Below are positions 61,289 through 63,348 of a stretch of 64,000 nt of DNA, in pieces (within the stretch, counting starts at the first letter, position 1; the number at the start of each line of letters is the position of its first letter). Position numbers and translations under genes: made by a program. The stretch covers positions 3,653,501-3,717,500 of the forward strand of contig NC_089735.1 of the NCBI RefSeq assembly GCF_035083965.1, given 5' to 3'. The stretch comes from Branchiostoma lanceolatum (lineage: Eukaryota > Chordata > Leptocardii > Amphioxiformes > Branchiostomatidae). Below the pieces are notes generated by a model. It was given only the letters and a program-made list of their open reading frames with translations, ran no database searches and was not told the DNA's origin.

Positions 61289-63348
61289 ATGAATCCCCCG
61301 TGTGCACAATGCAGCAAGACGCAAGTCTACGAAAACCACGCCTTCCGCACTGGTTTTCCAGTGCTGAATCAACGGACGAATCGGCCTCAGCACTGGTTTT
61401 CCAGTGCTGACGAAAGTTCAGCACTCGTTTTCCAGTGCTGACGAAAGTTCAGCACTCGTCTTCCAGTGCTGACGAAAGTTCAGCACTGGTTTTCCAGTGC
61501 TGAATCGCTGTATTCCAGTGCTGAGTTTCTTTCAGCACTCGTTTTCCAGTGCTGAAACTTGTCTCAGCACTCGTTTTCCAGTGCTGAATGGAGTTCGGCA
61601 CTCGGTTACCAGTGCTGAATGCGCGACAGAGCGGCGGTGCCAGGTCACGGGTCATGTCAAAGGTCATTCAGCACTGGTTACCCAGTGCTGAAACCGCCGT
61701 CAGCACTGGAACCGAGTGCTGATGTACAAAAACCACGCCTTCAGCACTGGATTTACCAGTGCTCGGGGACAATTCAGCACTGGTAACCGAGTGCTGATAT
61801 ACAAAAGCCACGCTTTCCGCACTGGATTTACCAGTGCTCGGGGATAATTCAGCACTGGAAAACGAGTGCTGAGAAATCCCCAGCACTGGAAAACGAGTGC
61901 TGAAAAAAACTCAGCACTGGAAAACGAGTGCTAAAAAAAACTCAGCACTAGAAAACGAGTGCTGAAGTGTTTTCAGCACTGGAACGTTTTTCTTACCAGT
62001 GCTGAGAGAAGTATTAGTCGTAAGAAGTGCCGCATGGTCACTTGAACTTACTTACTTTGTGATTCATTTAGAATAAACAATGACCAACTTTATTCCGACA
62101 CAATTTTGTCATTTTGTTCATTGTGTAATTGTATAGTAGATATAGGTATGAGGGATGTGTAACAAATAAACAACTTTATTTCTTTCTGGTCATAAGTTGT
62201 ACCTTTGTTTCGTGATTGTGATGTGCGATACAGCTCTTTTGGGAGAGATTTGGGTAGCCCTGAAAAGGGCCGGTTCTGATATTCTACTCGAAGAGCCGAC
62301 GCTGAATCTCAAGAAAGATTAGATCTGTCATGGCTCTTGGTGCGTCGGATGGTGCTTGATAGCCCTCGATGTGATGGGTAGCGATCTCCTAATGATTTAT
62401 CTGGACACTGACATACGTTCAGCAGTTTATATGTGATTTTGTACGCGATCATCGGTATCATCTGGACACTGAGATTCGTTCAGCAGTTTATTTGTGATTT
62501 TGTAAACGATGATTTATCTGGACGCTGACATACGTTCAGCAGTTTATTTGTGATTTTGTACGCGATGTATCATCTGGGCACTGACATGCGTTCACTAGTT
62601 TATTTATGATTTTGTACACGATTCTACGTTTTAAAATCGCAAGTATGTCACCGCCGTAACGTATCTCAGCACCAGTTTTCCAGTGCGGAATATTTGTCAG
62701 CACTCGGTTTGCAGTGCCGAAGCTTGTCTCAGCACTCGGTTTCCAGTGCTGACGTCGAGTTCTCCAGTGCTGAACTTCACTCAGCACTGGTTTTCCAGTG
62801 CGGAACTAAACTCAGCACTGGTTTTCCAGTGCTGAACTAAGCTCAGCACTGGTTTTCCAGTGCTGAACTAAACTCAGCACTGGTTTTCCAGTGCTGAAGC
62901 CACTTTCAGCACTGGAACCGAGTGCTGAAAAAGGAGAGCGTGGTTTTCGTAGTTTTGCCAGCAAGACGGTCTATCCGATGGAAAAGCTGAACTGCCTGGA
63001 CAAGGTAAGGGACCGCCCCGACTTTATATCATATCAGCTAGAAACATCTGTAGATTTCGTAAATAAAAATATGATCGCGGCTCTGTCTGATCGTGTCTAT
63101 CTTTGTGTCGTCTGCAGAACTGGCACAAGGCATGCTTCAAGTGTGAGGTGTGCAATATGACCCTCAATATGAAGACATACAAGGGCTACAACAAGAGACC
63201 TTACTGCAGTGCGCACTACCCGACGACCAAGCATACGACTGTAGCGGATACGCCTGAGAGTCGGAGACTCGGGAAGCAGCAGAGTCTGACCAGCGGTGTC
63301 AAGTACCACGCGGACTTCGAGAAGCAGAAAGGGAACTCATACAGCACG
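61289..63348 (+). CDS. LASP1: Lasp (LIM and SH3 domain protein), 5' part, first exon interrupted
   Basis: The first coding exon is in two pieces. 61289-61320 encodes MNPPCAQCSK, and 62959-63004 resumes at CSKTVYPMEKLNCLDK after repeating the last 9-10 bases. Exon 63118-63348 follows in phase. Together they match the LASP1/LASP2 N terminus: a LIM domain with zinc ligands C5, C8, H26, C29, C32, C35 and the PYCSAHYP end, then VADTPESRRL and the first nebulin-type repeat (VKYHADFEKQKG). The rest, including a second nebulin repeat and SH3 domain, lies beyond the window. Family role: actin-binding adaptor at focal adhesions and cell edges. The 1.6-kb insertion separates C5/C8 from the other zinc ligands; no GT-AG pair at its edges would remove it precisely. 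Confidence 0.92.
61343..62006. repeat. Left array of short palindromes (CAGCACT...AGTGCTG)
   Basis: About 18 units of a 22-24-nt hairpin, stem TCAGCACT/AGTGCTGA and a loop such as GGTTTTCC, CGTTTTCC or GGAAAACG, separated by 8-10 bp; the commonest spacing is 30-33 bp. Loops read TTTT up to about 61690 and AAAA from about 61849, so unit orientation flips inside the array. The terminal motif ACAAAAACCACGCCTT recurs internally at about 61724 and 61798. Confidence 0.95.
62231..62271 (-). promoter_or_regulatory. Histone-mRNA-type 3' stem-loop and purine-rich element
   Basis: On the minus strand: ACC, then stem-loop GGCCCTTTTCAGGGCT (62256-62271), then ACCCA, then AAAAGAGCTG about 10 nt downstream (62231-62240). 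This matches the conserved replication-dependent histone signal (GGYYCU-UUUC-AGRGCC followed by ACCCA and a U7-complementary AAAGAG element). No histone coding sequence precedes it; only a 15-codon frame ending EIQRRLFE lies upstream. Confidence 0.6.
62397..62640 (+). repeat. 57-60-bp tandem repeat, four units
   Basis: Units start with ATCTGGACACTGACATACGT-like sequence, then TCAGCAGTTTATTTGTGATT and TTGTACGCGAT; starts near 62398, 62458, 62515 and 62571. Confidence 0.9.
62667..62930. repeat. Right array of short palindromes
   Basis: About eight full units and one half unit of the same CAGCACT/AGTGCTG hairpin; the best-preserved units at 62782, 62813, 62844 and 62875 are 31 bp apart. The last unit (62907) has the opposite loop (GGAACCG). 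The array ends about 20 bp from the right inverted repeat. Confidence 0.95.

What the first reader, a model, noticed from the sequence alone, without database searches (positions are those of the whole stretch)
61312..62967. Lasp exon 1 interrupted in the LIM domain by a TIR element with a clean target duplication
The sequence shows MNPPCAQCSK at 61289 and the continuation SKTVYPMEKLNCLDK after 62959, with CAGCAAGAC at both edges and 20-bp inverted ends. Excising one copy of the direct repeat plus the element restores a standard Lasp first exon. No GT-AG pair coincides with the edges, so this is either a recent, possibly heterozygous disruptive insertion in an assembled haplotype, or an element that must be handled by unusual RNA processing. 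The second case would be an insertion turning into an intron.
Basis: partly seen in the sequence, partly recalled or inferred. Interest (0 to 1): 0.85.

Follow-up and report, generated by a model that had tools for sequence, protein, structure and literature searches.

The report
Foldback transposon inside amphioxus Lasp exon
In this European amphioxus sequence a hairpin-rich piece of mobile DNA sits in the first protein-coding exon of the Lasp gene, most likely breaking that copy, although a weak unusual splice signal leaves a small chance that it is cut out of the RNA like a new intron.

Summary
A 1,638-bp element (61321-62958) with 21-bp inverted ends (19/21 matching) sits inside the first coding exon of Lasp, flanked by an exact 9-bp direct repeat, CAGCAAGAC. 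The joined flanks give a protein 100% identical over 100 residues to an annotated Branchiostoma lanceolatum LASP1-like protein; a second gene also points to B. lanceolatum. The element has no long ORF, 22 hairpins against a shuffle mean of 1.5, and RNA that would fold far more stably than shuffles (z about -22), its ends pairing at the base. A 9-bp duplication plus ~31-bp palindromic arrays resemble Foldback/Mutator-type non-autonomous transposons; no transposase or second copy was found, so superfamily is untested. Best reading: a polymorphic insertion that disrupts Lasp exon 1. But that donor is weak, is paired in the predicted stem, and gives a zinc-finger spacing seen in none of 186 motif-bearing homologues. 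Introner-like splicing: possible, about 10%. RNA from a phased individual would decide.

The parts
61289..61320 (+). Lasp first coding exon, 5' part (MNPPCAQCSK plus two bases of the next codon), ending in the left target duplication
   Evidence: identical to residues 1-10 of B. lanceolatum LASP1-like P0001
61312..61320 (+). left copy of the 9-bp target site duplication CAGCAAGAC
61321..61341 (+). left terminal inverted repeat, 21 bp, 19/21 complementary to the right one; its first six bases GCAAGT are the candidate GC splice donor
61321..62958 (.). non-autonomous foldback-type element, 1,638 bp, longest stop-to-stop ORF inside it 89 codons
61387..61618 (+). array A: about 7.8 copies of a 31-bp unit containing the palindrome TCAGCACTSG-TTTT-CCAGTGCTGA
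61700..61872 (+). 2.3 copies of a 75-bp unit that carries degenerate internal copies of the terminal repeat (61725-61754, 61800-61829)
   Evidence: (families D8, D9)
61849..61966 (-). array B: about 3.8 copies of the 31-bp unit in inverted orientation relative to array A
   Evidence: (I1, I16)
62392..62622 (+). central 56-bp tandem repeat, 4.0 copies
62664..62929 (+). array C: 31-bp palindromic units again, in the orientation of array A (the last unit turned)
62938..62958 (-). right terminal inverted repeat
62959..62967 (+). right copy of the target site duplication; its CAG (62959-62961) completes the candidate acceptor TTTTGCCAG
62968..63004 (+). Lasp first coding exon, 3' part (rest of T, then VYPMEKLNCLDK)
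63005..63117 (+). Lasp intron 1, ordinary GT-AG (AAG|GTAAGG ... TCTGCAG|A)
63118..63348 (+). Lasp second coding exon (NWHKACFKC ... GNSYST)

Best explanation
A non-autonomous, foldback-type cut-and-paste DNA transposon inserted between codons 10 and 11 of the first coding exon of Lasp in the B. lanceolatum haplotype shown, duplicating 9 bp of the target. Shown: the element, its inverted ends, the exact duplication, the intact flanks, the premature stop 50 codons after the ATG, and that the uninterrupted exon encodes the annotated protein of the same species. Inferred: the insertion is polymorphic; transcripts from this allele read into the element, stop early and are lost or give a 50-residue peptide, so the allele is a loss of the LIM-containing protein unless transcription starts further downstream; the animal is rescued by the other allele. 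Also inferred: because two identical 9-bp repeats sit at the base of a long hairpin, the allele could revert exactly by transposase-mediated or replication-slippage excision.
For: Element, 9-bp duplication and 19/21 inverted ends; 0 comparable structures in 20 shuffled windows. Empty-site protein 100% identical over 100 residues to B. lanceolatum LASP1-like isoform X2. Second gene, NPFFR2: 100% identity to B. lanceolatum over 97% of a 152-residue piece, against 91% for B. belcheri. Stop after 50 codons. Donors near the edges are weak: GC donor 1.05 bits, GT donor at 61325 -2.8 bits, against 4.0-11.3 bits for five accepted donors in the window (generic matrix recalled from memory). Amphioxus heterozygosity of 3.2-4.2% (PMC12500494, abstract and passages); one B. 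lanceolatum reference, BraLan3, was a diploid assembly purged to one haplotype (PMC9673378, passages).
Against: No second haplotype, read or transcript was available, so polymorphism is inferred. An in-frame GC-AG route exists and would avoid the stop. Which B. lanceolatum assembly the window comes from is unknown; if it is the very assembly from which P0001 was annotated, then the annotation would imply exact removal of the element from RNA.
Confidence: 0.8

Rival explanations
1. Introner-like new intron. The element brings a GC donor (GCAAGT) at its first base and creates a TTTTGCCAG acceptor from its last bases plus the first three bases of the right target duplication. Splicing 61321-62961 joins ...AGC AAG AC | C AAG ACG GTC... 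in frame, giving MNPPCAQCSKTKTVYPMEK: two residues longer than native Lasp.
For: In frame, no stop, keeps every zinc ligand. It is the best-scoring of 82 in-frame donor/acceptor pairs examined that keeps all of CAQC (third overall). The GC donor ranks in the top 1.7% of the window's 2,753 GC dinucleotides. Pfam LIM still matches the product, 43.3 bits against 49.9 for native. Published introners use TIR elements, target-duplication splice sites and in some families GC donors, and one Aureococcus family adds codons from its duplication (PMC9860276 section 7).
Against: Position -1 of the donor is C and +2 is C; total 1.05 bits, a value reached by 31% of all GT dinucleotides. Donor bases 61321-61325 pair with 62954-62958 in the predicted fold. 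C-x2-C-x17-H is invariant in 186 of 186 fetched homologues that show the motif (186 of 221 examined); the product would have 19. Two pairs score higher overall but delete the first two zinc cysteines. No second intronic copy of the family is known to me; its end sequence occurs nowhere else in the window.
Confidence: 0.1
2. Exact removal by non-canonical processing (for example a CA-AG intron 61315-62961), helped by the long hairpin that brings both ends together, restoring native Lasp to the letter.
For: The ends pair in the predicted fold, -743 kcal/mol, 22 standard deviations below 12 shuffles. CAG|CAAG resembles a donor apart from its first two bases (sequence). Non-canonical introns dominate in a tunicate, Fritillaria borealis (PMC13326754, abstract). 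The annotated B. lanceolatum protein equals the exact-removal product.
Against: The same protein is expected from an empty allele. Minor non-canonical combinations are rare in animals (PMC7072748, passages); Fritillaria has its own altered U2AF and U1 chemistry. A cDNA with exact removal could also be reverse-transcriptase template switching between the two 9-bp repeats.
Confidence: 0.03
3. Lasp on this haplotype is transcribed from another, downstream or alternative first exon, so the insertion is nearly neutral.
For: Only the N-terminal LIM half-finger is upstream of the element; a methionine lies just downstream, in VYPMEK.
Against: The annotated B. lanceolatum protein starts with exactly this exon. 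Starting at that methionine loses the first zinc finger.
Confidence: 0.04
4. Assembly artefact joining unrelated sequence.
For: Highly heterozygous genome, hard to assemble (passages).
Against: A chance join would not make an exact 9-bp duplication around 19/21 inverted ends (0 in 20 shuffles).
Confidence: 0.03

Closest known systems
Foldback (FB) elements of Drosophila and Tm1 Mutator/Foldback elements of root-knot nematodes (PMC3169594, passages; Drosophila FB otherwise recalled)
   Same: Composite ends built of short tandem repeats in inverted orientation; most commonly 9-bp target duplications; non-coding members
   Different: No sequence relation tested; strict terminal repeat here only 21 bp, each 31-bp unit is itself a palindrome, and three arrays flank a central 56-bp tandem repeat. 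No transposase known
Mutator-like elements such as Muta1 of Aedes aegypti (PMC5225508, passages)
   Same: 8-9-bp duplications; with donor-site duplications about 90% of the yeast excisions examined were precise
   Different: Muta1 encodes a transposase; this element has no ORF over 89 codons, and its ends were not compared with any MULE
Introners (PMC9860276, abstract, section 7 and passages)
   Same: TIR element with target duplication in a coding exon; possible GC donor at the element end and acceptor from the duplication; a few codons added
   Different: No proof of splicing, no multi-copy intronic family shown, much longer (1,638 bp against reported family medians of 30-654 nt)

Membership tests
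Cut-and-paste TIR DNA transposon | Terminal inverted repeats | tested here: met
   19/21
Cut-and-paste TIR DNA transposon | Target site duplication of fixed length | tested here: met
   exact 9 bp for this copy; constancy across copies not testable with one copy
Cut-and-paste TIR DNA transposon | Dispersed copies in the genome | tested here: inconclusive
   No other exact GAAAACCACGC in the 64-kb window; no whole genome held. One match to the end pattern in viral contigs lies inside a coding-like stretch without a partner and looks like chance; the 22-bp palindrome has 0 matches there
Foldback elements | Long inverted structures made of short tandem repeats | tested here: met
   31-bp unit arrays in both orientations, inverted arms of 104-121 nt at 74-81%
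Mutator superfamily | Related MULE transposase mobilising the element | not testable with these tools
   element is non-coding and no genome is held
Introner | Spliced from mRNA at the insertion site | not testable with these tools
   no RNA data; only an in-frame weak GC-AG pair
Introner | Several sequence-similar introns in unrelated genes | not tested
   only 64 kb available
Lasp (LIM, nebulin repeats, SH3) | N-terminal LIM domain and nebulin repeat in the joined exons | tested here: met
   Pfam LIM 49.9 bits and Nebulin 22.8 bits, both above cut-off; SH3 lies beyond the window

The most novel reading that the evidence does not exclude
A foldback transposon caught at the moment of becoming an intron in a chordate: it carries a GC donor in its own inverted end, borrows the acceptor from its target duplication, and its giant hairpin brings both splice sites together, so Lasp is still made, with two extra residues.
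Probability: 0.1. Interest if true: 0.75.

Novelty: new member of a known kind. Interest (0 to 1): 0.35.

Why it matters
If ordinary, it is a clean example of a coding-exon insertion by a hairpin-array transposon in a highly heterozygous chordate, useful for describing this element family and for counting broken alleles in reference haplotypes. If the GC-AG intron is used, it would be a dated intron birth by a foldback element in a chordate, with empty and filled alleles available for direct comparison within one species.

Tried and rejected
Whole-genome search for further copies: no genome is held for this window. Search for relatives of the element in viral contigs: one match to the 21-base end pattern, inside a coding-like stretch of an environmental viral contig with no inverted partner seen in the 1.7 kb read, taken as chance; none for the 22-base palindrome. 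Genome contigs was not scanned. Rfam: 0 matches at gathering score for 61200-63400. Literature on amphioxus introners or amphioxus foldback elements: 'introner' with 'amphioxus' gave one paper, on gammarid transcriptomes (listing only); 'amphioxus', 'foldback', 'transposon', 'Branchiostoma' gave 0; searches listed nothing on amphioxus introners by title and abstract start. The library is open-licence PMC only, so this does not show absence from print.

In one search, 382 found and 120 listed, the same holds. The 4 members of the P0001 cluster could not be opened, so other amphioxus models may be hidden in it.

Considered and set aside: a GT donor at 61325 with acceptor 62965 (in frame, +2 residues, but total -1.1 bits); the two best-scoring in-frame pairs (GT at 61300 to 62961 or 62952), which remove CAQC and so the first two zinc ligands.

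Limits of the controls: the splice matrix was recalled from general knowledge, not trained on amphioxus; the NPFFR2 donors and acceptors are the best within 15 bases of tblastn edges. The fold is a single-strand prediction at 37 C; shuffles were only 12 and random window segments only 6 (mean -439 against -744 kcal/mol).

Full report
What is there. The start codon at 61289 opens MNPPCAQCSK; the exon resumes after the right repeat as ...TVYPMEKLNCLDK and ends at an ordinary GT donor at 63005. Between them lie CAGCAAGAC, 1,638 bp, and CAGCAAGAC again. The ends of the 1,638 bp are inverted repeats, 19 of 21 positions matching. The combination is far beyond chance: 3 pairs of 9-mers with 18/20 inverted ends in the window, 0 in 20 shuffled windows; the other two, at 20221 and 26459, look like short TIR elements themselves.

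What gene and what animal. The joined flanks plus exon 2 give 100 residues that are 100% identical to B. lanceolatum LIM and SH3 domain protein 1-like isoform X2, with LIM and nebulin-repeat matches above Pfam cut-offs and the first zinc finger aligned to the solved LASP-1 peptide 1zfo. A receptor gene elsewhere in the window matches B. lanceolatum NPFFR2 at 100% and B. belcheri at 91% (exon pieces). So the window is B. lanceolatum or a very close relative. The Lasp record and the NPFFR2 record lie on contigs of different length (18,547,751 and 19,381,563), which suggests two assemblies (inference); which one holds this window is not known.

The element. Its longest stop-to-stop frame is 89 codons. 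Tandem Repeats Finder shows 31-bp unit arrays at 61387-61618, 61849-61966, 62664-62749 and 62759-62898, a 75-bp repeat at 61700-61872 and a 56-bp repeat at 62392-62622. Each 31-bp unit holds a palindrome of the type CAGCACTGG-TTTT-CCAGTGCTG; the second array is inverted relative to the first, with arms of 104-121 nt at 74-81% complementarity. Degenerate copies of the terminal repeat lie inside, at 61725 and 61800 (family D8), as if the ends had grown by duplication. There are 22 non-overlapping 9-bp-stem hairpins, against a mean of 1.5 and a maximum of 5 in 50 shuffles; the predicted RNA fold is -743 kcal/mol against -487 +/- 12 in 12 shuffles. In the fold of 61312-62967 the two ends pair base to base and both 9-bp repeats are left single-stranded at the foot of the stem (the left one shown unpaired; the right one appears as unpaired at the end of the dot-bracket).

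What it does to Lasp. Read through, the allele encodes MNPPCAQCSKT, then 39 residues of element, then a stop. The likeliest consequence is a null or strongly reduced allele; this is inference. The annotated protein of the same species has the uninterrupted exon, which fits an empty allele elsewhere in the species. Amphioxus genomes carry 3.2-4.2% heterozygosity (PMC12500494, abstract and passages) and one B. lanceolatum assembly was reduced from a diploid to a haploid sequence by purging (PMC9673378, passages); gene presence-absence variation is widespread in two sister species (PMC12373286, passages). A disruptive allele in one assembled haplotype is therefore unremarkable.

Could it be an intron? 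That is correct, but the element's first six bases, GCAAGT, form the intron side of a GC donor, and its last bases plus the first three of the right repeat form TTTTGCCAG. Splicing 61321-62961 is in frame and yields MNPPCAQCSKTKTVYPMEK. Among 82 in-frame donor/acceptor pairs examined it is third by score and the best that keeps all zinc ligands. Published introners use exactly such arrangements, including GC donors and extra codons from the duplication (PMC9860276, section 7). Against it: the donor scores 1.05 bits, accepted donors in the window 4.0, 4.9, 9.7, 9.8 and 11.3; the acceptor scores 5.7, accepted ones 7.4 to 12.0; donor and tract are paired with each other in the fold; and the product changes a spacing of 17 that is invariant in the 186 of 221 fetched proteins showing the motif. 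Pfam's LIM score falls from 49.9 to 43.3 bits but stays above its cut-off. I put this at about 10%, and exact removal by a non-canonical intron at about 3%.

Placement. It works like a foldback-type, non-autonomous TIR transposon. 9-bp duplications and composite tandem-repeat ends are the marks of Mutator/Foldback elements such as Tm1 (PMC3169594, passages), and the Mutator-like element Muta1 excises precisely in about 90% of yeast excisions examined when 8-9-bp duplications are present (PMC5225508, passages), so exact reversion is plausible. Membership in the Mutator superfamily is not shown: no transposase and no second copy.

Verdict.

Noticed in passing
63420-63609 and 63850-63967: Two further short inverted-repeat elements in the Lasp intron after exon 2 share ends TARTCTCCAAGCAG, with apparent target duplications ATTAAGAC and ACGGCTGCC; the motif CTCCAAGCAG also occurs as an inverted pair near 48539-48740 and singly at 22359.
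   Followed up: partly
20221-20492: Short element with perfect 20-bp inverted ends (TAGCCTCCGTTGCAGTCCTT) and direct repeat TAGTTTTTC.
   Followed up: no
26459-26646: Short element with 18/20 inverted ends and direct repeat ACCAATCAC.
   Followed up: no
8233-11741: Neuropeptide FF receptor 2 gene: four exon pieces match the B. lanceolatum NPFFR2 record at 97-100%.
   Followed up: partly
46095-46800: Long open frames of WMDG / HPSI tandem repeats on both strands, a simple-repeat tract rather than a gene.
   Followed up: no
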